Below are positions 38,571 to 52,178 of a DNA stretch of 64,000 nt, piece by piece. The DNA lies in assembly GCF_000018205.1 (NCBI RefSeq), contig NC_009881.1:62001-126000 (forward strand), in the 5' to 3' direction. The notes beneath the pieces were generated by a model, which did not search any database, was not told where the DNA came from, and worked only from the letters and a program-made list of their open reading frames with translations. Origin of the DNA: Rickettsia akari str. Hartford (GTDB lineage Bacteria > Pseudomonadota > Alphaproteobacteria > Rickettsiales > Rickettsiaceae). The first letter of the stretch is position 1, and each line of letters opens with the position of its first letter. The translations under genes and the position numbers were made by a program.

Positions 38571-38625
38571 AAACCGAATCATGCAACAAAGCTGCATGAC
38601 AATAATTCACACAATAATTTTAGCA

Positions 38626-39300
38626 ATGTCTATAGAATTTAATATAAAAGGCAAATTTTATGTCATTTTATGTACGTTTTTTACAGTCCTTATTATAGTA
38701 GGAAACTTAATATATCAAAAATTTGTTTACCTTAATATTTTTAATTTTTATATTCTTGAATTATCTATAGGAGCAATTTTTTACCCGTTAACTTTTTTAT
38801 TAACAGATTTAATAGCTGAGTTTTATGGTAAAGCAAGAGCAAATTTTTGCGTGAAGCTTGCTATCATTTTTAATATAATAGTAGTTTTAATAATAAGTCT
38901 TATGGACAAATTGGAAGCGACTAATTGGTCTAAGGTTGATAACATAACTTTTAATCAAGTTTTTGGTTCATGTTATATATCTTTTTTAGCATCAACTTTT
39001 GCCTGTTATATAGCTCAACTTGTTGATATTAATATCTATTTATGGATACGTAAAATTACTCAAGGTAAATATTTATGGATAAGAAACAATTTTAGTACGG
39101 CAATTTCTTTATTTATTGATACTTTTATTGTAATTGGGATTATGAGCTTATTTAATATTGTTCCTTATGACCAATTACGTCATCTTGTACTCAATAGCTA
39201 TTCGTTTAAACTATTTTTTACCGTATTTAGTACACCGATATTCTATTTGGCAGTTTGGTTGATACGCTTATCTATTAAGAGGTTTGATAAATCAGGATAA
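38626..39300 (+). CDS. yhhQ: Queuosine precursor transporter (YhhQ/VUT family)
   Basis: Six-helix membrane protein of the DUF165/VUT family; E. coli YhhQ imports preQ0 and preQ1. From ATG 38626 the protein has 224 residues. Typical motifs are the N-terminal helix VILCTFFTVLIIVGNLIY, then FYPLTFLLTDLIAEFYGKARA and LWIRNNFSTAISLFIDTF. An upstream in-frame ATG at 38581 lies in repeat flank and would add 15 unlikely residues. The gene ends in a hairpin convergent with the sca2-like gene. QueF, encoded at 30.9 kb, would reduce imported preQ0. Confidence 0.88.
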   Translation: MSIEFNIKGKFYVILCTFFTVLIIVGNLIYQKFVYLNIFNFYILELSIGAIFYPLTFLLTDLIAEFYGKARANFCVKLAIIFNIIVVLIISLMDKLEATNWSKVDNITFNQVFGSCYISFLASTFACYIAQLVDINIYLWIRKITQGKYLWIRNNFSTAISLFIDTFIVIGIMSLFNIVPYDQLRHLVLNSYSFKLFFTVFSTPIFYLAVWLIRLSIKRFDKSG

Positions 39301-39329
39301 GATTCTCAAAAAACTATCCTGTATTTATC
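39286..39329. terminator. Convergent bidirectional terminator hairpin
   Basis: GATAAATCAGGATA (39286-39299) pairs with TATCCTG-T-ATTTATC (39315-39329) with one bulged base, around an A-rich loop. It covers the yhhQ stop codon and ends one base before the sca2-like stop (39331), so it can end transcripts from both sides. Confidence 0.6.
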
Positions 39330-39330
39330 T

Positions 39331-42300
39331 TTACAAATTGACTTTTAACTTAACAAGTCCTTGATGGCTTTGATATTTTCTATGAGTATAATAATTATAC
39401 TCAAGTAGAACATTTATATTTTTTCTGCTCATAAGCATATTACTACCTATATTATATCCAAGCTTAGGTTGCTTCGGTATAATAATTGTTTCTTGTAATA
39501 TTTGTCCTTTAAAAGTTGCTTTTGCATTCACTTTTGTATTTTTATGATTGAAGTGACGCTCAATATTACCATACAAACTCGGTGTTAATACTACATTACT
39601 TATGGTTGCTATAGGTTTAAACACTATTTTACCGCCAATACTACTTTCAAATAATTGATTTGATTTCTTTTGAATCACTAAGTTTTCTATATCTACATTA
39701 TACTCTTTATAGCTGCTAGCTCTTGAATAATCATATTTAAAACCGATATTAGGAATAAAATGTAAATCGTCTTTTGTACGATATTTATAATTTAATAAAG
39801 TTTGGAAGCTGAAATTATTGTTTTGATATTTTCCAACGATATTATTAATACTTTTAGATTTATTCTTAATATAATTATGACCATAAGATGTTATAGCCTG
39901 TAATGAGAAACCTTTATTGAGTTCTTTTAGACCGTAAATGCTGAAAAGATGAACGTTAACCGCTGTTTTTCCTAGTTTTTCATTATATTTAATTTTAGAT
40001 TCTAAACGGCTATAAGCTATTCCGATCACATCATGACTATTGATAAATTCAATATCAGCTCCGATAGTTATGCCGGTGGTACGACCTTGATATTTTGGAA
40101 TATTCTTCCAAGTTCCTTGTTTGTTCATACCGTATAAGCCGCTAATCCATACTCCTCTTGCGATAGTTGGTTCTTCATCACCGGTAGCTATTGCAGAAAC
40201 CTTTAATCTATCACTTAAAATATTATGATGAACAGGTTTGTGAAGAGTTGAAGTAGCCTTAACTAATATTGCTACTTTCCTACTGGTGTCATCAGATACT
40301 TGTTGTCTCTGTGCTGCCTCATCTTGTTCCACGATTGCTTCAGTTTTGAATGACACACCAATATCTTCATCTTCACCTTCTAAAGCTATATCGTTTTTTA
40401 ATTTTTCTTCCTCGGTTTCTTCTTGTTTACGTGTGGTCTTTTCTGTTTGTTCATCTTCTTCGGCTGCTAGACGTTTACGTTCTTGCTCTTGGCAGTTCTG
40501 CTCTTCTTGACGCTGACGGTTTTCATTTTCTTTGTGTTCAGCTTCATCTTCTGCATTTTCTGCTTTACGTTCTACCTCATCTTCTACCATTTTGCGATTT
40601 ACTTCGTCTTGACGCTGACGGTTTGCTTTTTCTTTGTATTCAGCTTCATCTTCTGCATTTTTAAACATTGCAGCCATATCTTCTAGATATTCATCCTCTG
40701 CATTTTCTGCTTTACGTTCTACCTCATCTTCTACCATTTTGCAATTTACTTCGTCTTGTTTACGCTTCAGTTCTTCTTGACGCTGACGATTTGCTTTTTC
40801 TTTGTGTTCAGCTTCATCTTTTGCATTTTTAAACATTGCATCCATATCTTCTAGACGTTCTGCTTGTGCATTTTCTGCTTTACGTTCTACCTCATCTTCT
40901 ACTATTTTGCGATTTACTTCGTCTTGACGCTGACGGTTTGCTTTTTCTTTGTATTCAGCTTCATCTTTTGCATTTTTAAACATTGCAGCCATATCTTCTA
41001 GACGTTCTGCTTGTGCATTTTCTGCTTTACGTTCTACCTCATCTTCTACTATTTTGCGATTTACTTCGTCTTGTTTACGCTTCAGTTCTTCTTGACGCTG
41101 ACGGTTTGCTTTTTCTTTGTGTTCAGCTTCATCTTTTGCATTTTTAAACACTGCATCCATATCTTCTAGACGTTCTGCTTGTACATTTTCTGCTTTACGT
41201 TTTACCTCATCTTCTACTATTTTGCGATTTACTTCGTCTTGTTTACGCTTCAGTTCTTCTTGACGCTGACGATTTGCTTTTTCTTTGTGTTCAGCTTCAT
41301 CTTTTGCATTTTTAAACATTGCATCCATATCTTCTAGACGTTCTGCTTGTGCATTTTCTGCTTTACGTTCTACCTCATCTTCTACTATTTTGTGATTTAC
41401 TTCGTCTTGTTTACGCTTCAGTTCTTCTTGACGCTGACGATTTGCTTTTTCTTTGTGTTCAGCTTCATCTTTTGCATTTTTAAACATTGCATCCATATCT
41501 TCTAGACGTTCTGCTTGTGCATTTTCTGCTTTACGTTCTACCTCATCTTCTACTATTTTGCGATTTACTTCGTCTTGACGCTGACGGTTTGCTTTTTCTT
41601 TGTATTCAGCTTCATCTTTTGCATTTTTAAACATTGCATCCATATCTTCTAGACGTTCTGCTTGTGCATTTTCTGCTTTACGTTCTACCTCATCTTCTAC
41701 TATTTTGCGATTTACTTCGTCTTGTTTACGCTTCAGTTCTTCTTGACGCTGACGGTTTGCTTTTTCTTTGTGTTCAGCTTCATCTTTTGCATTTTTAAAC
41801 ACTGCATCCATATCTTCTAGACGTTCTGCTTGTACATTTTCTGCTTTACGTTTTACCTCATCTTCTACTATTTTGCGATTTACTTCGTCTTGTTTACGCT
41901 TCAGTTCTTCTTGACGCTGACGATTTGCTTTTTCTTTGTGTTCAGCTTCATCTTTTGCATTTTTAAACATTGCATCCATATCTTCTAGACGTTCTGCTTG
42001 TGCATTTTCTGCTTTACGTTCTACCTCATCTTCTACTATTTTGTGATTTACTTCGTCTTGTTTACGCTTCAGTTCTTCTTGACGCTTTGCTGCTGCTTCT
42101 TGTTGTTTACGCTCTGCATCTCTTACCTCAGCATTCTCTAAGTTTTTTTTAGCTTGTTTTATCTCTTCTTGAGCATCTTCTAGCTCTTGTTTTTGTTTAT
42201 TTGCTAACTCTTCTTTTTGTTTTGTTGCCTTTTTATCATAATCATCATCCCACTCATCATCAGAATCTTCGTCAGAACTATCCGCCTTCCTCTGTTTAGC

Positions 42301-44664
42301 AATTGTATTCTTGAATTTAATACGTTCTAATTTTTGTTCAGCTTTTTTAAGCTGCTCTCGAGCCTCGAATATTTCCTTAGAAATTAGTGGACTAGATTCT
42401 GCATTATCGTTTTTATTTTCTTTCTTCTTGTTTAAGTACTCTAAAGTTGTTTCTATTTTTCCTACTGCCTTTTTAGCATTTGTGAGCATTTCATCTACGT
42501 AGTCTTTGACAAGTTTTTCTTGTTGCTTTGCGATTCCGATTTTTTGTAATTCTGAAAGTAGTGTGTGATATTTTTGTTGTTTTGCTTTAAATTGTGATGC
42601 GTCTGCAGTTGATGTGAATTTTCCAGCTTTATTTTTTTTGCTCTTTAGTGTATTAGTTTCGTCACTTAGTGCATTTAGTGCTATTATTTCTTTCGGTGAT
42701 AAATAATTCTGCCAATTATCATCCATATTATCTTGAGATTTTTTAGGTATTATTTTAAATGCTTGAACTGAATTTTCTATTAGTTCTTGTCCTTTTTCTT
42801 TTGCTAAGGCCAGTTGATCTTCAGCTCCTTTTAAATATCCTTGGCATGCTGTTGCATTTTTTATTGTATTGTCTTTTAGGAGACTGCTCATTTCACTAAA
42901 TTTTCTTGTTGCAGCGTTAACTGCTTGCTCTAACTCATTCTTTGCTTTTGTTATTCTGTCAACATCGTTATTATTTGCATCCTGTGCATTTTGATTATCC
43001 TCTTTCCATCCTTTATTATTCTCATCGTGTGTGTTTGGATTATCATTTTGGTTATTTGGATTATGCATATTCTGTCTAACCCGATCCCACGCATTCAAAT
43101 CTCTTGGTGTTTCGTGCTTTCTTCTTTCTAGCTCTTTTTGTATTGTTTCTGGATCTGATTTCCTTTGTACAAGTGCCTTCTTTAGTGCATCTACGAAAGG
43201 ATCACCTTCTGTATTTTTGTTTAATTTTTGATTTCGTTCTTGTCTTCGCTCTCTGTCTATTTTGGTTATAAGAGCTTTTCGTATCCTGGTATTATGAGTC
43301 AATACGTCTACGATCAATCCTCGTTGTTCTGGAGTAGTGTTTTCTAAACCTTTTGCTAAAGTTTTACTTACAGTTTCATTACTTTCATTGCCATCAATAT
43401 ATATTATAGCTTTAGTTAAATTCTTTATTAAATCTGTTTCTTTATATTTTTGTAATATTCTAGTTAAATCTTGTTCAGTTATCGTACCATCATCATGGAG
43501 AAAAATTTTCTCTAGGATTTCATTATTTAAGTTATTTACTTGCTCTCTTACTTTTTTTGCTGAAAAAGGAACATTTTTTAAGTTTGTGTTGATCTTATTT
43601 TCATCGAGTATAAAACCTACTAATTGATTACTTGAAATTGTATCTAATTGCTTAGATAATTCTTTTAGTTTATCTTTTAATATTGCCTTACTGTGTCCGC
43701 ATAATAAAATTTCAGAATTGTCATTTATAAATTTCAATTGTCCTAATATATCACCCTGTTGACTTAAAATTTTAGGTAGTTCTTTAGGTAATTTTTTTGA
43801 TATATCTGTTGATACAGTCTTACCGTACGCACCTAGAATTTCAGAATTTTCCTTTATAAATCTTAATTGTCCTAATATATCACCCTGTTGACTTAAAATT
43901 TTAGGTAATTCTTCAGGTAGTTTTTTTGATATATTTGTTGATTCGGTCTTACCGTACGACCCCAGAATTTCAGAATTTTCCTTTATAAATTTTAATTGCT
44001 CTAATATATTCCCTTGTTGACTTAAAATGTCTTGTTTCCTTTGTGCATCGAGTTGCTCTAATGATAAAAGACGCAATATTGCCTCTTCATGACTTTCCTC
44101 AAAGAGCTTATTATCTAAGAAATCTCCTGTTTGTTTGTTTTTATTTGTAAACTGAGCTATATAAGGGTCATTTATAAACTCTTGGTATATTTTTTTTGCG
44201 TTATCTAAGATTGAATCTTCTCTCTTATTAAACAATGTAATAATGTTGTGCACACTAGTGTCAAGGTTCTGAAGTGTTAATTCTTGGCGTATCAAATATG
44301 CTATTACTTTTGGAAATTGTATTATTAGATTTTGTTTCCTATCATGTATATCAATTAATTTAGCGTATCTTTTACCTAGCTCTGTAGTAGGGGGATGCAC
44401 TTCTGGTATTTTTGTTGATGAGGAAGATTTTTTACTGCTACCAGTGCTTTTTGATGACTCTGGTTGAGTAGTTTGTCCTCCACTACCAGTATTGTTTGAT
44501 GACGCTGCTTGATATGTCCATCCCGGTGGAGGAAGAGGTGGTGGTGGTGGAGGTGGTGGTGGATTGCCGGCTGCTTCTGAACCGGTGGTAAATAAATTTA
44601 TTGATATACTAATAATGAAAGAGTATGTCAACAATACTGATTTTAATTTGCCTGTTATACTCAT
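39331..44664 (-). CDS. Sca2-like autotransporter with coiled-coil repeat passenger
   Basis: Giant type V autotransporter (1777 residues), a tandem paralogue of sca2. Order: signal peptide (about 1-32), then at once a run of proline (NPPPPPPPPPLPPPG). A helical region (about 85-500) aligns with the Sca2 passenger after its first proline block (shared DPYI, LF-x-E and (N)T(N)-(L/I)RK patterns) and holds three 43-residue repeats of ILSQQGDILGQL type. An Asn-rich linker follows. Next comes a highly charged coiled-coil array (about 850-1390) with 49/56-residue units. The C-terminal barrel (about the last 300 residues) is nearly the same as in Sca2. It lacks the formin-like N-terminal domain of Sca2. 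It may be one of the numbered sca genes; I cannot tell which. Function unknown; probably surface exposed. Confidence 0.88.
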   Translation of the reverse strand: MSITGKLKSVLLTYSFIISISINLFTTGSEAAGNPPPPPPPPPLPPPGWTYQAASSNNTGSGGQTTQPESSKSTGSSKKSSSSTKIPEVHPPTTELGKRYAKLIDIHDRKQNLIIQFPKVIAYLIRQELTLQNLDTSVHNIITLFNKREDSILDNAKKIYQEFINDPYIAQFTNKNKQTGDFLDNKLFEESHEEAILRLLSLEQLDAQRKQDILSQQGNILEQLKFIKENSEILGSYGKTESTNISKKLPEELPKILSQQGDILGQLRFIKENSEILGAYGKTVSTDISKKLPKELPKILSQQGDILGQLKFINDNSEILLCGHSKAILKDKLKELSKQLDTISSNQLVGFILDENKINTNLKNVPFSAKKVREQVNNLNNEILEKIFLHDDGTITEQDLTRILQKYKETDLIKNLTKAIIYIDGNESNETVSKTLAKGLENTTPEQRGLIVDVLTHNTRIRKALITKIDRERRQERNQKLNKNTEGDPFVDALKKALVQRKSDPETIQKELERRKHETPRDLNAWDRVRQNMHNPNNQNDNPNTHDENNKGWKEDNQNAQDANNNDVDRITKAKNELEQAVNAATRKFSEMSSLLKDNTIKNATACQGYLKGAEDQLALAKEKGQELIENSVQAFKIIPKKSQDNMDDNWQNYLSPKEIIALNALSDETNTLKSKKNKAGKFTSTADASQFKAKQQKYHTLLSELQKIGIAKQQEKLVKDYVDEMLTNAKKAVGKIETTLEYLNKKKENKNDNAESSPLISKEIFEAREQLKKAEQKLERIKFKNTIAKQRKADSSDEDSDDEWDDDYDKKATKQKEELANKQKQELEDAQEEIKQAKKNLENAEVRDAERKQQEAAAKRQEELKRKQDEVNHKIVEDEVERKAENAQAERLEDMDAMFKNAKDEAEHKEKANRQRQEELKRKQDEVNRKIVEDEVKRKAENVQAERLEDMDAVFKNAKDEAEHKEKANRQRQEELKRKQDEVNRKIVEDEVERKAENAQAERLEDMDAMFKNAKDEAEYKEKANRQRQDEVNRKIVEDEVERKAENAQAERLEDMDAMFKNAKDEAEHKEKANRQRQEELKRKQDEVNHKIVEDEVERKAENAQAERLEDMDAMFKNAKDEAEHKEKANRQRQEELKRKQDEVNRKIVEDEVKRKAENVQAERLEDMDAVFKNAKDEAEHKEKANRQRQEELKRKQDEVNRKIVEDEVERKAENAQAERLEDMAAMFKNAKDEAEYKEKANRQRQDEVNRKIVEDEVERKAENAQAERLEDMDAMFKNAKDEAEHKEKANRQRQEELKRKQDEVNCKMVEDEVERKAENAEDEYLEDMAAMFKNAEDEAEYKEKANRQRQDEVNRKMVEDEVERKAENAEDEAEHKENENRQRQEEQNCQEQERKRLAAEEDEQTEKTTRKQEETEEEKLKNDIALEGEDEDIGVSFKTEAIVEQDEAAQRQQVSDDTSRKVAILVKATSTLHKPVHHNILSDRLKVSAIATGDEEPTIARGVWISGLYGMNKQGTWKNIPKYQGRTTGITIGADIEFINSHDVIGIAYSRLESKIKYNEKLGKTAVNVHLFSIYGLKELNKGFSLQAITSYGHNYIKNKSKSINNIVGKYQNNNFSFQTLLNYKYRTKDDLHFIPNIGFKYDYSRASSYKEYNVDIENLVIQKKSNQLFESSIGGKIVFKPIATISNVVLTPSLYGNIERHFNHKNTKVNAKATFKGQILQETIIIPKQPKLGYNIGSNMLMSRKNINVLLEYNYYTHRKYQSHQGLVKLKVNL
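40500..42110. repeat. Coding tandem repeat with 651-bp higher-order period
   Basis: The units encode variants of RQEELKRKQDEVNRKIVEDE and onward to KEKANRQ: 56 residues (168 bp), or 49 residues (147 bp) when EELKRKQ is missing. Eight regular copies are followed by worn ones. Copies 1-4 (168+168+168+147 = 651 bp) are repeated almost unchanged as copies 5-8. The rare variant NHK recurs exactly 651 bp apart (41391 and 42042). Confidence 0.9.
43690..44040. repeat. Three 129-bp coding repeats in the sca2-like gene
   Basis: Each encodes about 43 residues around ILSQQGDILGQLRFIKENSE followed by ILG-x-YGKT and ISKKLP-x-ELPK. The third copy diverges at its end. They lie in the N-terminal half of the passenger. 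Confidence 0.75.
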
Positions 44665-44707
44665 TACTTAACCTCAATGATTATTTTTTGATATATAAAC
44701 GAGGAGC

Positions 44708-44736
44708 ATTATATAACATTTAATAATATTTATCAA
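44708..44736 (-). promoter_or_regulatory. Promoter of the sca2-like gene
   Basis: On the minus strand TTGATA (44736-44731), 17-bp spacer, TATAAT (44713-44708), about 45 bp before the start codon; ribosome site GAGG follows. Similar sequence (TAATAAATATTATAT, GTTTATAT, GAGGTT) precedes sca2, showing the upstream region was duplicated with the gene. Confidence 0.6.
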
Positions 44737-44919
44737 GAAAAACATTATTTTTAATTTAACCTATTGGTTACATTAAAAATAATTGTTGCCATCAATTAGC
44801 GGATAAGTTAGGAAGATTAAGAAAAATATACTAAGATAAAACTTGAAAAATTGCCTACAATGTTTTTGTAAGTCCTCAGAGCATATCCGTAAATTAGTTT
44901 TAATTAATAATTAAAGGGC

Positions 44920-45030
44920 TTTTTTTAGTAAAAACTGATAAGATTTTTGCTGGAAATATTGTTCATATTTCAAAAAAATCTCATAATTTGCAGTAAAAAA
45001 GAACTGAATTAGCGGTTAAAATTTGTTTAC
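44920..45030. repeat. Second copy of the fourth repeat type, inverted
   Basis: The core 44938-45015 (ATAAGATTTTTGC, GTTCATATTTC, AAAAAAATCTCATAATTTGC) is the reverse complement match of 29382-29437 between dcd and secB. It is the main content of the 481-bp gap between the two sca genes. Confidence 0.55.
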
Positions 45031-45106
45031 TGATAGGCATCTCAGATGCTGAATGTTTAATAATGGCTGCCGTTCCATGGCTTATTTCCAACTTGTGTTG
45101 CAGTAT

Positions 45107-45146
45107 ACTCAACCACTAATAAGCTAAAATCCTATAGTGGTTGAGT
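45107..45146 (-). terminator. 12-bp hairpin at the sca2 stop
   Basis: ACTCAACCACTA (45107-45118) and TAGTGGTTGAGT (45135-45146) pair perfectly with a 16-base loop. It begins on the last base of the sca2 stop codon. No T-run follows on the minus strand, so it may protect the mRNA end rather than terminate. Confidence 0.5.
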
Positions 45147-48100
45147 TACAAATTGACTTTTAACTTAACAAGTCCTTGATGGCTTTGATATTTTCTATGA
45201 GTATAATAATTATACTCAAGTAGAACATTTATATTTTTTCTGCTCATAAGCATATTACTACCTATATTATATCCAAGCTTAGGTTGCTTCGGTATAATAA
45301 TTGTTTCTTGTAATATTTGTCCTTTAAAAGTTGCTTTTGCATTCACTTTTGTATTTTTATGATTGAAGTGACGCTCAATATTACCATACAAACTCGGTGT
45401 TAATACTACATTACTTATGGTTGCTATAGGTTTAAACACTATTTTACCGCCAATACTACTTTCAAATAATTGATTTGATTTCTTTTGAATCATCAAATTT
45501 TCTATATCTACATTATATTCTTTGTAGTTGCTAGCTCTTGAATAATCATATTTAAAACCGATATTAGGAATAAAATGTAAATCGTATTTTGTATGATATT
45601 TATAATTTAACAAGCTTTCAAAACTTAAATTATTGTTTTGATATTTTCCAATTATATTATTAATATTTTTAGATTTATTCTTAACATAATTATGACCGTA
45701 AGATGTTATAGCATGTAACGATAAGTCTTTAATGAGTTCTTTTAGACCGTAAATGCTGAAAAGATGACCGTTAACAGCTATTGTTCCTAGTTTTTTATTA
45801 TATTTAATTTTAGATTCTAAACGGCTATAAGCTATTCCGATCACATCATGACTATTGATAAATTCAACATCAGCTCCGATAGTTATGCCGGTGGTACGAC
45901 CTTGATATTTTGGAATATTCTTCCAAGTTCCTTGTTTGTTCATGCCGTATAAGCCGCTAATCCATACTCCTCTTGCGATAATTGGTTCTTCATCACCGGC
46001 ACCTATTGCAGAAACCTTTAATCTATCACTTAAAATATTATAGTGAACAGGTTTGTGAAGAGTTGAAGTTGCCTTAGCTAATATTGCTACTTTCCTACTG
46101 GTGTCATCAGATACCTGTTGTCTCTGTGTTGCCTCATCTTGTTCTGCGATTGCTTCAGTTGTGAATGACACATCGATAGCTTCATCCTCGCTTTCTAAAG
46201 CTATATCTTTTTGTGATTCTTCTTTGGTTGTATTATTGCTTTCTTTTAATTCTTCATCAGTTTCATATCCTTTATCTTCTTCATCACTAGATCTTAAGTC
46301 TATATTATCTGATGATTTATCATTTTTGCTATCGTTAGAACTCAGTAACCTAGGTGATAAAGCGGTTTCTGAATCGAATTCCTCTGACTTTTTATTACTA
46401 TCTTCAGGTTGTGTATTATCCTTTGTTGAGGATTCGTCATTTGCAGATTCGTTTGCCTGTAGGAATAATCGTAATTGTTTCGGATCTAAACGTCCTACTT
46501 TCTTTTCCTGGTTATTATTTTCTGATTGAAGATCAGTACCATATTTTTGTTCTAGTTCAGCAGACTCTGCTAGTAATTGTTCAACACATAGAAACAATTC
46601 TTTATCTTTTGCTAACTCTAAAAGTTTGGATTTATAAATATTATGTACTTCTTGTCCTATTTCAGTTCTAGGACCTATAAAATCAGAGTTAGCAGTATTA
46701 AATGCCTCTTTTACTGTTTCTTCTGGATATTTTGCTAATTGCTGTGTATAAATATTATGTACTTCTTGTCCTATTTCAGTTCTAGGACCTATAAAATCAG
46801 AATCAGCTGAAGTAAACGCCTCCGTTAATTTTTTACTAAGTATAATATCATCTTCAACATATTTAATAAATTCTTTATCTTTTGTTAATGCCAACAGTTT
46901 AGAAGTATAAATATTATGTATTTCTTGTCCTATTTCAGTTCTAGGACCTATAAAGCTAGAGTGCATAGTGTCGATTGCTTCTTGGATTTTTGCAAAATAC
47001 GTATTATTTTGATGAACTTTAGATAAATTTTTTGAATGCTCAAATGCTACTGATTCCACTATAGCTTTTTGAAACAAATCGGCATCAGAGTATTTTGCTT
47101 TATGTCCTGCTGATTTTTGTCCTGATAAAGCAAATTCTTTATATCTTACAGCTATATCTGAGCTAAAGTTATAAATTTTTGGAGTTGTTTTAAAAGTAGA
47201 TGTAGATGTCTTTACATTTAATCTAGCAATTCTACTGATCCAATCTTTAGTAATCCCTAAAGTTGTTAGATAAGCTAATTCCGCATCTTTTAAACCGGAG
47301 GGTGGCGGTGGCGGTGGCGGTGGCATGTTTCCGGTATTGATGTGTTTTTTAGCTTTTACTTGTGAGTACTCTTTAAGAGCGTTTAATATTATAGTCATAT
47401 TTAATTTACTAGCAAGAACTCTTAGCTGTTCATCGCTCATACATGTAAATGAAGGCAAAACTAATCTTAATTGATCTAAATTATTATTACCTTCTAGTTT
47501 GATAGTATTAGCTTTTAAAAACTCTTTTAATAATTCAGGTTCTTTTTCCTTGACTATCGCAATAAACTCATTGTGAGGTAAATTTGCTTTAATTAATTCT
47601 TCAAGTTTTATTGTGCTTAAAATAGCTTTTCTTAAATCATCAAGTTTAGCCTGTGCTTGATCAGTGTCAATTGTTTTTCTTAAGTTGGTATCTTCTGTTA
47701 TTAAAAAAGTAGCTTGTTGTGCTGTAGTTAATGTTTTAGGGTTGTTAATTAACTCTTCAACTTTATTGCCAAATATATCTTGATCTAAGTTTTTTGCGTT
47801 AGCATATGCAAACTCTAATTGTTCAAATAGAGTTGTTTTGCTCTCGAATTCTCTCATCAATTTTAATTGATTTAATTCATGTTTAATAGGCTTCTTTAAT
47901 TCTTCAGATATTTTGCATGACGATAATAAAATACGTTTTACAGCATCATCAGTGTCTTCATTGAAAAGATTTTTAATTATGTCTTCGCTTGTTGTTGCTT
48001 TCTTACCATTTACGGTTATATATTGTATATACGGGTCTTGAACAAGTTTGTTAAAAACATCTTTAGCTTTTGCTTCGATTTCAGGGGTTGAAATGCTAAA

Positions 48101-50626
48101 TACATTTACAAGAGTTTTTTCATCAGCTCCTTGGTTGGCGTATGATGTGGTTAATATTTGACGTATAACATTTGTAAGATCAGCTTGTCTTTTTATAAGC
48201 TGATCCTGTAAATCATAAGCTTTTTTACCTCCTGTCTCAGTTCTATATTCTACATATAATTTTGCATAAGCTGTCTCTGGCTCACTTCTTTCTGTGCTGG
48301 TTGCACTAGAAGCTGTAGGTTGGGGTAACACTTTTGGTTGAACAGTAGTATTAAGAATAAACTGAGTATATAATGAGTGTATGTGAGAATATTCTGCTTG
48401 TAACTTATTTAAATCCAAATTGTTCGAGTTGCTAATAAAGCCTTGAGAATTTAAGTGAGGAGGTGGTGGCATACTCCCATTTAGTGGTAGAGGCGGCGGA
48501 TTTGGAATACCACCACTTAGTGGTAGAGGCGGCGGATTTGGAATACCACCACTTAGTGGTAGAGGCGGCGGATTTGGAATACCACCACTCAGTGGTAGAG
48601 GTGGTGGATTCGGCATACCACTTTGTGTTTGTGCTAAATTATTTGCATTATTACCTACTGCTAATCCTAAAATTTTATTGGTTTCATTGCTTAGTGTATT
48701 ATTATCAGATAATATTACTTTAATTGCTGAATTTAATGCTTGTTTATTTACTTCTTTGGCTAGTTTAATCATATTGTCTTTAGTTAAACTATCTATTATT
48801 AGTCCTTGATTTTTTAGTTCTATATTTATTTCTGCTACTATTTTTGGCGTTAAAATATACTCGCTTTTTACAATATGTGATTGCATTTTATTTTTTAACT
48901 CTAATTGCAGAGCTAAAAATTTTTCTACTAGACTCCTATCTTTACTTGCTGCTAGTTTGATAAGATCTAATCGTGCCTTTTCTTCAAATTGACTATTAGA
49001 TATATTTCGCGTTGCATAGTCTTGAATTCTTTCAGCAAATTTAGTTTTTTCTTCAGAAGAACTATTTTCTAATAATGCTTTTAGAATAGGTCTATTTTTA
49101 ACGTCAATATTGGTCTTGAAATCTAATTGTCCCATATCGTCGCTAAATAATACCCTTTGAATAGTATCATCATTAAAATCACTTAATATACTAGTTACTG
49201 CTTCTTTTTTATAACTACTATCTACTGTAAGATTTAATGCTGCTATAGGATCTGTTTTAATAAGATTTTTAAATTCTTCAATATTTTCTTCTTGTTGTAT
49301 TATTCTATTTATATTGTGTTGAGGCTGCGTTAAATTACCATTATTTTCTTTATTATTAAAGTGAGCTTTAAAAGTACTTATAGGATCAAAATAATATGAT
49401 TGTTTCTCTTTTCTACCCGTGGTAACTACCGAAGATGTTTCTGTAGTGTTTATACCTTGATTTGACATATACCAATTATCACTTTTGGTCTCAATCTTTT
49501 TTGTTGAGCCTACGGTAGACGGTTTAGTAGTATTATTGTTATTTAACAGCTGGTTTGCATTTATTCCATCTGTGATTTGCTGTATATAAGAATTCGCTTT
49601 TATTTTCCCTATCCTAAATTCTTGCTTTAATTCTTCAACTGCAGGGATAATATTATTATCTATATAATATGCTTTTTTATTAAGCATTTTCTGAGTTGCT
49701 ATTGATGCAATATAGTTTGTTGCCTCACCTTTATCACAACCAAATTTCTGCTCTAGCTCTTTTTCTGTAGGAATACTATTAGCAGCTATATATTGCGGCT
49801 TTTCTTTGTCCATAACTTTAAGTCTTATTGACTTAATATAGGCATCTCTATTATCATCACGAGATATACCAAACCTATTTTTTAACTCTTTTTCTGTAGG
49901 AATATGTCTATCCGCTATATATTGTTCCTTTGCGTTTTCCATAATTTCAGTTCTTATTGATAAAACAAAAGATTCTGCATCATCTTTATCCATGTTAAGA
50001 GCAGTCTTTACTTCTTTTATTTCAGGGATAATATGATTATTAACATAATGTCTGTATTTAATATCTCTTTTTATTGAGCTAATATATAGATCGATTAACG
50101 CTTTTTTGTCTTTTTCTGCACGACGTACATTTTGATCTTTTTCTACATTATCGTATATTTTGCTAGGGTCATAACTTATTCCAAGAATTGTTGCTGCTTC
50201 CATATATGTAGGAACTATGCCTTGCTTAATATATTCTTGTTTTTTTGTATCAAAATCCTGTTGTTTTATTCTTTGGATGTATAATAAAATTTCAGCTCTT
50301 GCTTGTCTTGCTTTATGTCTAGTATTATCTAAAAAGCTTGATAAATCTGTTTCCTTATACTGTATTCCTAGATCATCTTGTGCTTGAGTAAAACTAGGAA
50401 TTAAGTTTGCTTCTTGCCATTTTTTTATTTTTTCATTTGGAGTAAAATCCTTCCAAATATTTTGTTGCTGTTTTGCATTGTGCTTTTGCCATGTCGGGGT
50501 TTTACTAACTAAATCCTTAAAGCTTGCCGCTCTAGTACTTGTACTCAAAAAGCTACTAGTAAATAAACAGGTTGACATGAAAAAAGTTAAAACATATTTT
50601 TTTGAGTAGGAATTTTGTAATTTCAT
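45146..50626 (-). CDS. sca2: Autotransporter Sca2, formin-like actin nucleator
   Basis: Surface protein that nucleates and elongates host actin filaments for late motility and spread. 1826 residues, full length for spotted-fever Sca2 (about 1800). Order: signal peptide (about 1-33), helix-loop-helix repeats of about 45 residues (about 40-360; IPTEKELKNRFGISRDD, IPTEKELEQKFGCDKG) that form the formin-mimicking crescent. The first proline block is at about 667-720 (four PNPPPLPL units). A helical middle follows, then a second proline run (MPPPPPPPPSG, about 1100), three FIGPRTEIGQE motifs (about 1220-1320), an acidic linker and the barrel (last about 300). Adjacent to cysS as in other Rickettsia. 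sca2 is broken in several species but intact here. Confidence 0.93.
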   Translation of the reverse strand: MKLQNSYSKKYVLTFFMSTCLFTSSFLSTSTRAASFKDLVSKTPTWQKHNAKQQQNIWKDFTPNEKIKKWQEANLIPSFTQAQDDLGIQYKETDLSSFLDNTRHKARQARAEILLYIQRIKQQDFDTKKQEYIKQGIVPTYMEAATILGISYDPSKIYDNVEKDQNVRRAEKDKKALIDLYISSIKRDIKYRHYVNNHIIPEIKEVKTALNMDKDDAESFVLSIRTEIMENAKEQYIADRHIPTEKELKNRFGISRDDNRDAYIKSIRLKVMDKEKPQYIAANSIPTEKELEQKFGCDKGEATNYIASIATQKMLNKKAYYIDNNIIPAVEELKQEFRIGKIKANSYIQQITDGINANQLLNNNNTTKPSTVGSTKKIETKSDNWYMSNQGINTTETSSVVTTGRKEKQSYYFDPISTFKAHFNNKENNGNLTQPQHNINRIIQQEENIEEFKNLIKTDPIAALNLTVDSSYKKEAVTSILSDFNDDTIQRVLFSDDMGQLDFKTNIDVKNRPILKALLENSSSEEKTKFAERIQDYATRNISNSQFEEKARLDLIKLAASKDRSLVEKFLALQLELKNKMQSHIVKSEYILTPKIVAEINIELKNQGLIIDSLTKDNMIKLAKEVNKQALNSAIKVILSDNNTLSNETNKILGLAVGNNANNLAQTQSGMPNPPPLPLSGGIPNPPPLPLSGGIPNPPPLPLSGGIPNPPPLPLNGSMPPPPHLNSQGFISNSNNLDLNKLQAEYSHIHSLYTQFILNTTVQPKVLPQPTASSATSTERSEPETAYAKLYVEYRTETGGKKAYDLQDQLIKRQADLTNVIRQILTTSYANQGADEKTLVNVFSISTPEIEAKAKDVFNKLVQDPYIQYITVNGKKATTSEDIIKNLFNEDTDDAVKRILLSSCKISEELKKPIKHELNQLKLMREFESKTTLFEQLEFAYANAKNLDQDIFGNKVEELINNPKTLTTAQQATFLITEDTNLRKTIDTDQAQAKLDDLRKAILSTIKLEELIKANLPHNEFIAIVKEKEPELLKEFLKANTIKLEGNNNLDQLRLVLPSFTCMSDEQLRVLASKLNMTIILNALKEYSQVKAKKHINTGNMPPPPPPPPSGLKDAELAYLTTLGITKDWISRIARLNVKTSTSTFKTTPKIYNFSSDIAVRYKEFALSGQKSAGHKAKYSDADLFQKAIVESVAFEHSKNLSKVHQNNTYFAKIQEAIDTMHSSFIGPRTEIGQEIHNIYTSKLLALTKDKEFIKYVEDDIILSKKLTEAFTSADSDFIGPRTEIGQEVHNIYTQQLAKYPEETVKEAFNTANSDFIGPRTEIGQEVHNIYKSKLLELAKDKELFLCVEQLLAESAELEQKYGTDLQSENNNQEKKVGRLDPKQLRLFLQANESANDESSTKDNTQPEDSNKKSEEFDSETALSPRLLSSNDSKNDKSSDNIDLRSSDEEDKGYETDEELKESNNTTKEESQKDIALESEDEAIDVSFTTEAIAEQDEATQRQQVSDDTSRKVAILAKATSTLHKPVHYNILSDRLKVSAIGAGDEEPIIARGVWISGLYGMNKQGTWKNIPKYQGRTTGITIGADVEFINSHDVIGIAYSRLESKIKYNKKLGTIAVNGHLFSIYGLKELIKDLSLHAITSYGHNYVKNKSKNINNIIGKYQNNNLSFESLLNYKYHTKYDLHFIPNIGFKYDYSRASNYKEYNVDIENLMIQKKSNQLFESSIGGKIVFKPIATISNVVLTPSLYGNIERHFNHKNTKVNAKATFKGQILQETIIIPKQPKLGYNIGSNMLMSRKNINVLLEYNYYTHRKYQSHQGLVKLKVNL
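46660..46970. repeat. Three spaced FIGPRTEIGQE motifs in sca2
   Basis: The motif FIGPRTEIGQE-(I/V)-HNIY occurs three times, at about 46925-46965, 46765-46805 and 46645-46685. The base sequence is nearly the same each time, while the sequence between copies differs in length and content. Confidence 0.8.
48480..48623. repeat. 36-bp proline-rich tandem repeats in sca2
   Basis: Four copies of a 36-bp unit (on + strand AGTGGTAGAGGCGGCGG and so on) encode GGIPNPPPLPLS. Three are the same at base level; the outer ones differ by a few bases. They form the profilin-binding FH1-like block of Sca2. Confidence 0.9.
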
Positions 50627-50798
50627 TCAAACCTCGATCAGCTATTATCTTTTTTTAATATAAACTAAAGAGTGATATAATATTTATTAACTTATGTAAA
50701 TTATTAATTATTAGTTTTGTTTAACTAATAGATTTTTAAACTAAAATGTGTTTAATACATCACATACTAATTGCATCTCAATTTTTGGTAAATAAAAT

Positions 50799-52178
50799 AT
50801 GCAAATTCAATTGCACTTGTATAACACTCTTAGCCGTACTAAAGAGGTTTTTAATCCTCAAGATCAAGCTAACATAAAAATGTATGTGTGTGGACCGACT
50901 GTTTATGATAATCCTCATATAGGCAATAGTAGATCGGTAGTAGTATATGATTTACTTTATCGTATAGTTATAAAAATATTCGGCAGTAGAGCAGTAAAAT
51001 ATGTACGCAATATTACCGATGTTGACGATAAAATTATTGATAGAGCTGAACTACTTGGCATTACTATTAATGAGTTGACTGATAAAGTTACACAAGAGTT
51101 TCATACAAATATGGCATATTTAGGTTGCATGCTACCGAATATTGAGCCGAAAGCTACAGAGCATATTGATGTAATGATCGAAATAATAGAGCGCTTAATA
51201 GCAAAAGATCATGCATATATTACAGATAATCATGTTTATTTTGATGTTTTATCAGCTCCAAATTATACGGAATTATCTAACCGAAATTTAGAAGAAATGT
51301 TTGAGGGAGTGCGTATAGAAAAGAGCAAAACCAAAAATCATCCACAGGATTTTGTATTATGGAAACCGGCAAAGCCAAATGAATCCACAAATATGAATTT
51401 TGAAAGTCCTTGGGGATTTGGTCGCCCTGGATGGCACATTGAATGTTCAGCCATGAGCTATAAATATTTAGGTGAGAATTTTGATATTCACGGTGGCGGA
51501 GCAGATTTAGTCTTTCCGCATCATACTAATGAAATTGCACAAAGTAGATGTGCTTTTCCGGATTCTACCTATGCTAAATATTGGGTACATAATGGCTTTC
51601 TAACGGTGAATGGTGAGAAAATGAGTAAATCTCTCGGTAATTTTATTACAGTAAGGGATTTAATGGATAAGGACATTTCAGGAGAGGTAGTAAGATTATT
51701 CTTATTAAGTAGCCATTATAGGCGTCCACTTGATTATAATGATAAAGCTATAGAAGATGCTAAGAAGACTTTAGATTATTGGTATAGAGCCATAGAAAAT
51801 ATTAATGTACAAAAAATAGATTTACCTCACAATTTCATGCAAAGCTTACTTGATGACATGAATACGCCGCTTGCCGTTAAAATAATTAATGACTATGCTA
51901 AAGGTGTTTTTATTGCTAAAACTGAAAAAGAAAGACAGCTTAATGCCTCTGTTATTATTACTTGTGCTAATTTTATTGGTTTAATGAATCAGACTCCCCA
52001 TGAGTGGTTTAATAGCGGTGTAGATTCACTCTATATAAATGAGCTTGTAAATAAGCGTTTGGAAGCAAAAAAACAAAAAAATTGGTTATTAGCCGATCAA
52101 ATTCGTAACCAGTTATTAGAGGGAAAAATAATTCTAGAAGATAAATCTGATGGTACCACTATTTGGCGAAAAGAATAA
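50799..52178 (+). CDS. cysS: Cysteinyl-tRNA synthetase
   Basis: Charges tRNA-Cys. Class I motifs are clear: HIGN at residues 40-43 after the zinc ligand C31 ([16 protein letters not shown]), the zinc-site stretch [11 protein letters not shown], and KMSKSLGNF near 272. 459 residues is standard. It diverges from sca2, with a 172-bp AT-rich intergenic region that must hold both promoters. Followed by a palindromic repeat rather than by an operon partner. Confidence 0.98.

What the first reader, a model, noticed from the sequence alone, without database searches (positions are those of the whole stretch)
39331..50626. Tandem sca2 pair in which one copy has lost the formin-like domain and gained a coiled-coil array
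Seen directly: two adjacent same-strand autotransporters share upstream sequence, part of the mid-passenger (patterns around DPYI and TxxQ/R) and about 395 C-terminal residues. Sca2 keeps the N-terminal helix-loop-helix repeats. The neighbour goes from signal peptide straight into polyproline and then carries about 540 residues of charged repeats. Known: Sca2 uses the N-terminal domain plus proline blocks to act like a formin. Inference: duplication followed by domain loss made a surface protein that keeps profilin-binding-type prolines without the nucleator, perhaps an adhesin or an actin modulator.
Basis: partly seen in the sequence, partly recalled or inferred. Interest (0 to 1): 0.85.

Follow-up and report, generated by a model that had tools for sequence, protein, structure and literature searches.

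The report
Ancient paralog of Sca2 beside Sca2
Beside the gene for Sca2, the surface protein that some Rickettsia use to build actin tails, lies an old sister gene (Sca6) that lacks Sca2's ring-forming front part but keeps a proline tip and a relative of its middle domain; the typhus bacterium's so-called Sca2 is this sister, which bears on how that bacterium handles host actin.

Summary
In detail: two tandem same-strand autotransporters with related upstream regions, related middle passengers and near-identical C-termini. The interpretation needs correcting. The neighbour is the ortholog of R. typhi RT0052, printed as 'Sca2', 'dSca2' or sca6, so the family is known. It is not a recent Sca2 duplicate: in a middle-domain tree six Sca6 form a 100/100 clade outside ten Sca2, and recent duplication is rejected (p-AU 0.0003, 0.003). 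The last 330 residues give the opposite tree, grouping copies by genome (Sca6 clade rejected, p-AU 3e-6): gene conversion. Loss of sca6 through these shared ends is suggested, not shown, by 3' flanks. 'Lost the formin domain' is half right: basal orthologs carry Sca2's second N-terminal block but no detected NRD, so NRD loss in Sca6 is not shown. Sca6's signal peptide resembles that of R. bellii-type proteins, not Sca2's. Homology to Sca2's middle, reportedly actin-binding, domain is not stated in the passages I read, one of which calls these passengers 'completely different'. Best functional guess (about 0.4): a stalked display of poly-proline plus an actin-binding-type domain that modulates host actin without Sca2's ring.

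The parts
39331..44664 (-). Sca6 / dSca2 autotransporter, 1777 aa
   Evidence: intact ORF; 63% to the R. typhi 1483-aa protein over 99% of residues 85-830
44566..44664 (-). signal peptide of the R. bellii type (residues 1-33)
   Evidence: scores 80-91 vs shuffles about 23 +- 4.5 against three bellii-type peptides; 22 (chance) against Sca2
44527..44562 (-). poly-proline tip (residues 35-46)
   Evidence: seen directly; seven invariant prolines in the six aligned Sca6 orthologs
43297..44475 (-). middle domain related to Sca2 (residues 64-456), all-helical in the model
43708..44028 (-). 129-bp (43-residue) tandem repeats inside the middle domain
   Evidence: same period in R. typhi RT0052
42130..43044 (-). 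residues 541-845, no counterpart found in Sca2
   Evidence: no hit above controls
40312..42129 (-). charged helical repeat rod with LEDMxxMFK motif (residues 846-1451)
39331..40409 (-). 3' tract homogenised with Sca2 (94.9% over 1079 nt, last ~300 nt 100%)
45146..50626 (-). Sca2, 1826 aa
49541..50527 (-). Sca2 NRD, PF22203 (residues 34-362)
48632..49426 (-). Sca2 second N-terminal block (residues 401-665); matched in basal orthologs from about residue 438, absent from Sca6
48458..48622 (-). Sca2 first proline-rich region
   Evidence: Drf_FH1-like, 36.3 bits, below its cut-off of 40
47342..48424 (-). Sca2 middle domain (residues 735-1095)
45146..46224 (-). Sca2 copy of the homogenised 3' tract
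44665..44739 (-). Sca6 upstream region related to that of Sca2
50627..50701 (-). Sca2 upstream region related to that of Sca6
39271..39330 (-). 3' flank of sca6, also found behind solitary sca2 genes of seven relatives and behind sca6 of G015
45086..45145 (-). 3' flank of sca2 in the two-gene state, seen here, in G022 and in G005

Best explanation
The neighbour is Sca6 (also printed as dSca2, or as R. typhi 'Sca2'), an ancient paralog of Sca2. SHOWN (the confidence given is for this part): it shares with Sca2 an upstream region, the module 'proline tract + middle helical domain' and the translocator; the two split before the Sca2 clade diversified; their 3' ends have been homogenised by gene conversion inside genomes. 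SUGGESTED BY THE FLANKS: the near-identical ends let sca6 drop out by recombination, giving the one-gene Sca2 loci of many spotted-fever-type genomes. INFERRED FUNCTION (probability about 0.4): a beta-barrel anchors a species-variable charged helical rod. The rod holds out a helical domain related to Sca2's middle actin-binding domain, with a free N-terminal poly-proline tip. The protein thereby recruits profilin-actin or other proline-binding host proteins and modulates actin, without the NRD half that Sca2 needs to close a ring round the filament end.
For: Orthology to R. typhi; the published anti-'Sca2' peptide of R. typhi lies at residues 496-509 of that protein and in 0 of 11 Sca2. Middle-domain homology; both models are helical with similar helix order over the first helices. 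Ancient split: Sca6 100/100 and ten Sca2 100/100; a clade of Sca6 with the window's Sca2 is rejected, p-AU 0.0003, and with seven Sca2, p-AU 0.003. Gene conversion: 94.9, 99.0 and 99.4% between paralogs in three genomes, against 84-99% per 100 nt between species in the same tract; in the tree of the last 330 residues the window's pair joins at 100/99 and G022's at 95/94, and a Sca6 clade is rejected, p-AU 2.7e-6. Deletion: 7 of 10 solitary sca2 tested carry the flank of the window's sca6, 0 of 500 simple shuffles each. Maintained gene: long open frames in four genomes here and in the R. typhi and R. asiatica records; dN/dS 0.28-0.80 in 6 of 6 Sca6 segment comparisons. Function: the review PMC9569871 reports that R. 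conorii Sca2 869-1060 is an actin-binding surface and that the PRDs take up profilin-actin. PMC2440523 lists sca6 as full-length in R. typhi, which makes small, rare tails, and as split in R. prowazekii, which is non-motile.
Against: The second half of the middle domain is only weakly matched directly to Sca2 (295-456 vs 922-1076, probability 17); it rests on the link through the basal pair G020/G017a, while the third basal copy gave only 7.6. The alignment behind the Sca6 model contained Sca2 rows, so the models are not independent. In the window's genome the paralogs beat the orthologs clearly only in the last 300 nt; in some windows further in (89-91%) they do not. The deletion reading is weakened by sca6 of G022 and G005, whose flanks do not match the window's. 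No WH2 or other actin motif was found, although that search is insensitive. R. helvetica has rickA, a broken sca2 and no actin tails (PMC5825168); if G005 is that species, an intact Sca6 is not enough for tails. The Sca6 passenger was found at length in only 4 of 23 Rickettsia genomes, so it is dispensable. PDB matches are unspecific.
Confidence: 0.8

Rival explanations
1. A recent tandem duplication of Sca2 in this lineage, followed by loss of the NRD and gain of a repeat array.
For: Tandem position and near-identical C-termini; basal orthologs have Sca2's second N-terminal block, which Sca6 lacks.
Against: Middle-domain tree and AU tests; different signal peptides; orthologs in R. typhi and R. 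asiatica and in G005, G015 and G022; the high identity is confined to the 3' tract.
Confidence: 0.06
2. Sca6 is chiefly an adhesin: the rod and helical domain bind a host-surface receptor, and the prolines are only a flexible spacer.
For: Surface exposure of the R. typhi ortholog under the name Sca2 (PMC3415449); other Sca proteins, and R. conorii Sca2 when expressed in E. coli, act as adhesins; the rod diverges fast between species.
Against: The proline run is kept in all six aligned orthologs and the middle domain is under constraint, although the rod turns over freely.
Confidence: 0.35
3. The neighbour is a decaying relic.
For: Not found in most of the 23 Rickettsia genomes searched; split in R. 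prowazekii according to PMC2440523.
Against: Open frames of 1483-2191 aa in six orthologs and dN/dS below 1 in all six segment comparisons. In G005 and G015 Sca6 is intact while sca2 is broken.
Confidence: 0.05
4. Instead of deletion through the 3' ends, the one-gene genomes lost sca6 in another way or never had it, and carry the flank because it lies beside the same downstream gene.
For: The flank adjoins the same downstream gene; sca6 of G022 and G005 do not carry it; three canadensis-type genomes match neither flank. I raised this from 0.25 to 0.4.
Against: The split predates these genomes; G015's relocated sca6 carries the same flank away from the locus; in seven genomes the sca2 stop runs straight into it.
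Confidence: 0.4

Closest known systems
R. typhi RT0052 ('Sca2', dSca2, sca6)
   Same: Signal peptide, poly-proline start, middle domain, 129-bp repeats, LEDMxxMFK array, translocator
   Different: Array of six 50-residue units instead of 49/56-residue heptad units; held here only as a protein, so its neighbourhood was not seen
Sca2 of spotted-fever-type Rickettsia (formin mimic)
   Same: Upstream region, first proline tract, middle domain, translocator
   Different: Neighbour lacks NRD, the second N-terminal block, PRD2 and the tail; different signal peptide; has the charged rod
R. bellii-type 'Sca2-6'
   Same: Signal peptide followed at once by poly-proline; translocator; near cysS in G002 and G012
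   Different: No middle domain detected and no rod; 892-924 aa
Basal Rickettsia Sca (G020, beside cysS; G017a, elsewhere)
   Same: Proline tract and middle domain related to both paralogs
   Different: Has the second N-terminal block, PRD2 and tail of Sca2, without a detected NRD

Membership tests
Sca2 (NCBIfam NF052625) | Whole-protein score over the curated cut-off of 2200 bits | tested here: not met
   Neighbour 823.7, Sca2 2938.7
Sca2 (formin mimic) | NRD helix-loop-helix repeats, PF22203 | tested here: not met
   No hit in the neighbour at E up to 1
Sca2 (formin mimic) | Second proline region and FIGPRTEIG tail | tested here: not met
   No counterpart of Sca2 1110-1392 found in the neighbour
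Sca2 (formin mimic) | Middle helical domain | tested here: met
   hhalign probability 97.4 for the first half; second half only through basal orthologs
Sca2 (formin mimic) | Nucleates actin and tracks barbed ends | not testable with these tools
   Needs biochemistry
Sca6 / dSca2 | Ortholog of R. typhi RT0052 along the passenger | tested here: met
   63% over 99% of residues 85-830; one clade 100/100
Sca6 / dSca2 | Poly-proline directly after the signal peptide | tested here: met
   All six aligned orthologs
Sca6 / dSca2 | Label sca6 applied to this very gene in print | tested here: inconclusive
   Sca6 is listed for R. typhi in PMC2440523; no passage read gives the R. akari gene that label
Classical autotransporter (type Va) | C-terminal beta domain PF03797 | tested here: met
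   E 2.1e-31, residues 1505-1756
Classical autotransporter (type Va) | Sec signal peptide | tested here: inconclusive
   Clear by eye; no signal-peptide predictor was run
R. bellii-type Sca2-6 | Same passenger after the proline run | tested here: not met
   Only an 18-column stretch of prolines aligns with Sca6

The most novel reading that the evidence does not exclude
Sca6 is a second kind of actin-handling autotransporter: Sca2's proline plus middle actin-binding module on a long rod, without the ring-closing N-terminal half. It is what the typhus group uses for its short actin tails in place of Sca2. The locus is a recombination machine: conversion keeps the translocators interchangeable, and deletion or conversion then shuffles passengers onto them.
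Probability: 0.3. Interest if true: 0.75.

Novelty: already known. Interest (0 to 1): 0.5.

Why it matters
Reviews call the typhus-group protein a 'truncated' Sca2 (PMC10883807), a 'divergent' one (PMC9553169) or 'completely different' (PMC9569871), and findings on spotted-fever Sca2 are carried over to it (for example in PMC12919770). Here it is the ortholog of a separate ancient paralog that shares one specific, reportedly actin-binding, domain with Sca2. That gives a concrete candidate and domain to test for how R. typhi, which lacks rickA, makes actin tails. The window's genome and G022, with both paralogs intact, are natural places to separate the two functions. Gene conversion at the 3' ends also warns that sca2 phylogenies that include the translocator mix two histories.

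Tried and rejected

Naming: the first genome-contig scan found no relative; the second named seven records. Plasmid searches to name G005 and G006 found nothing. G005 as R. helvetica is a guess from recalled sizes: its RickA frame is 628 aa against 559 published. Papers not held: (among them the main Sca2 structure and mechanism papers), so the Sca2 mechanism is taken from a review.

Rows dropped: G004's Sca2 and G017b were left out of the second middle-domain tree as long branches; in the first G004's Sca2 was on a long branch outside both the Sca6 clade and the ten-Sca2 clade. G018 had no intact cysS frame for the species tree. R. typhi and R. asiatica are not in the species tree. G014 is cut by a contig end. 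R. australis has its sca2 split over two contigs and is taken as one-gene because no Sca6 passenger was found in it.

Full report
What is there. Two intact genes lie head to tail on the - strand between a cysS gene (50799-52178) and a membrane-protein gene (38581-39300; both labels are my reading): Sca2, 1826 aa, and its neighbour, 1777 aa. Sca2 has the N-terminal repeat domain (PF22203, E 9e-184), matches the solved structure 4J7O, and passes the Sca2 family cut-off (2938.7 against 2200 bits). The neighbour has only the autotransporter beta domain and scores 823.7 bits in that family. The genome is 1,231,060 bp. I take it for R. akari from the recalled length and its place beside R. australis, but two published primers failed to confirm this.

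The C-terminal 409 residues align at 78%. The middle passengers are related: profile comparison without the proline tract gives probability 97.4 (E 1e-11) for neighbour 64-235 against Sca2 755-948, and the best hit to the reversed Sca2 profile reaches 0.6. A colinear second stretch is weak (17%). Through the basal pair G020/G017a the match extends: neighbour 70-432 against G020 435-733 at probability 98.0; a third basal copy (G017b) gave only 7.6. The upstream 75 nt of the two genes beat all 300 simple shuffles.

What it is. A protein search with residues 85-830 found seven proteins: the window's own, one of R. asiatica, and five R. typhi-type forms, four of them named R. typhi and one unnamed, at 63-68% (only the 7999 candidates sharing most words were scored). 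The peptide used to raise antibody to R. typhi 'Sca2' (PMC3415449, passages read) sits at residues 496-509 of the 1483-aa R. typhi protein and in none of 11 Sca2. PMC2440523 (passages) lists sca6 as full-length in R. typhi. PMC3415449 (passages) already notes that one of two R. akari Sca2 proteins resembles the R. typhi one in the placing of its motifs, and PMC11077975 (passages) calls the R. typhi form dSca2, function unknown. So the family is known under several names. I use Sca6.

Distribution. Among 23 Rickettsia genomes, both genes are intact in 2 (the window's and G022). Sca6 is intact with a broken sca2 in 2 (G005; G015, where sca6 lies elsewhere). Sca2 without Sca6 is in 10. R. bellii-type proteins are in 4, and a remnant of one in G019. 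One hybrid is in G013, basal forms are in 2 (G017, G020), and 1 is cut by a contig end (G014). PF22203 was found in 15 of 85 genomes of the family, all in this genus. The Sca6 passenger was found at length in 4 of 85, with two further weak partial matches, in G009 and G020. A RickA match, not always intact, was found in 21 of 23.

Age. In a tree of the middle domain, six Sca6 form one clade (100/100) and ten Sca2, including the canadensis type, form another (100/100). A clade of Sca6 with the window's Sca2 is rejected (p-AU 0.0003), and so is one with the seven non-canadensis Sca2 (p-AU 0.003). The divergent Sca2 of G004 was left out there; with it in it stood outside both clades on a long branch. 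Sca6 itself sits on a long branch (1.9), so exact rooting is less sure than the separation.

Gene conversion. The 3' ends tell another story. Paralogs in one genome are 94.9% (1079 nt), 99.0% (1081 nt) and 99.4% (868 nt) identical in the window, G022 and G005. In the window the last 300 nt are identical while each copy differs 4-10% from G022; further in, two windows of 100 nt (89 and 91%) are no more alike than orthologs, so the newest exchange there was short. In a tree of the last 330 residues, Sca6 and Sca2 of the window pair at 100/99 and those of G022 at 95/94, and a Sca6 clade is rejected (p-AU 2.7e-6). Two parts of one gene with two histories are most simply explained by conversion.

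Loss. The 60 nt behind sca6 here match those behind solitary sca2 in 7 of 10 genomes tested (R. tamurae, R. australis, Ca. R. kotlanii, G004, G006, G009, G010; 0 of 500 shuffles each), and behind the relocated sca6 of G015. The window's own sca2 has another flank, shared with sca2 of G022 and G005. The three canadensis-type genomes (G003, G008, G018) match neither, and the sca6 flanks of G022 and G005 do not match the window's. Recombination between near-identical 3' ends would leave the pattern seen in the seven; a flank kept by position is a serious rival, which I raised to 0.4.

Direction of domain change. The most basal orthologs (G020, G017a) are colinear with Sca2 438-1263 (probability 100, E 5e-74) but have no PF22203. 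So the NRD is either a gain of the Sca2 side or a loss elsewhere, and its loss in Sca6 is not shown. What Sca6 lacks relative to them is the block before the first proline region, and PRD2 with its tail. Sca6's signal peptide matches three R. bellii-type peptides (80-91 for the window's copy against about 23 +- 4.5, 0 of 1000 shuffles) and is at chance against Sca2's. A Pyrocoelia endosymbiont protein (G013) mixes a Sca2-type signal peptide, part of the NRD, an R. bellii-like middle and two LEDM-type motifs (15.2 and 6.0 bits, controls at most 1.8); its signal peptide also scores above shuffles against the other kind. The family appears to evolve by swapping modules.

The rod. The charged array is 379-1033 residues long in six orthologs, built from different units: 49/56 residues here (heptads), 50 in R. 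typhi, 15 in G022, 8 in R. asiatica and G005, 43 and 19 in G015. Length and unit drift freely. The middle domain is constrained (dN/dS 0.28-0.66; 0.80 for the segment between it and the rod).

How it may work. By autotransporter logic (established knowledge, not tested here) the N-terminus ends outermost, so the proline run would be a free tip on a rod, followed by a helical domain. The model has mean pLDDT 77.5, is helical from residue 95 on, and has very low confidence through the proline-rich stretch. According to the review PMC9569871 (passages), R. conorii Sca2 869-1060 is an actin-binding surface, both proline regions take up profilin-actin, and N- and C-terminal halves close round the filament end. 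Sca6 has a proline region and a relative of the middle domain but no N-terminal half. I therefore favour actin recruitment or modulation without Sca2-type processive assembly, at about 0.4. For: full-length in R. typhi with small, rare tails and split in non-motile R. prowazekii, one of 19 such genes (PMC2440523). Against: R. helvetica, with rickA, a broken sca2 and no tails (PMC5825168, passages), if G005 is that species; and the lack of any recognised actin motif. Adhesion is the main rival.

What is not in print, as far as searched. Searches (listings) and the passages read gave no statement that Sca6/dSca2 shares Sca2's middle domain, nor of gene conversion or 3'-end deletion at this locus. 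The papers naming sca6 and solving Sca2 were not held, so this is a limited claim. I rate the object itself as already known and the relationships as the new part.

Noticed in passing
L122:6989-9073 (genome G020): A 694-aa autotransporter with signal-peptide-like start, PPPPPPP and a WH2 motif (PF02205, 27.3 bits, over its cut-off of 23.1) before a charged helix and beta domain; a compact actin-binding-type passenger in a basal Rickettsia.
   Followed up: partly
L040:12403-13482 (genome G005): A transposase-like ORF (359 aa) sits between an intact sca6 and a broken sca2.
   Followed up: no
L046:8194-14769 and L117 (genome G015): sca6 lies away from the cysS locus, where only NRD remnants with stops remain, with transposase-like ORFs nearby.
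   Followed up: partly
L050:7885-11304 (genome G013): Hybrid Sca protein: Sca2-type signal peptide, partial NRD, R. bellii-like middle, two LEDM-type motifs.
   Followed up: partly
window 39331-44664 versus R. typhi RT0052: A published R. typhi qPCR (PMC12919770) targets the six 150-bp repeats of this gene as 'sca2'; repeat units differ between species, which fits its reported species specificity.
   Followed up: no
L039 (genome G004): Its Sca2 is unusually divergent in the NRD (36%) and middle domain (29%) although the genome is close to the window's.
   Followed up: no
Sca6 middle-domain tree: The window's Sca6 pairs with that of G015 (92/92) rather than with that of G022, unlike the species tree, hinting at exchange between species.
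   Followed up: no
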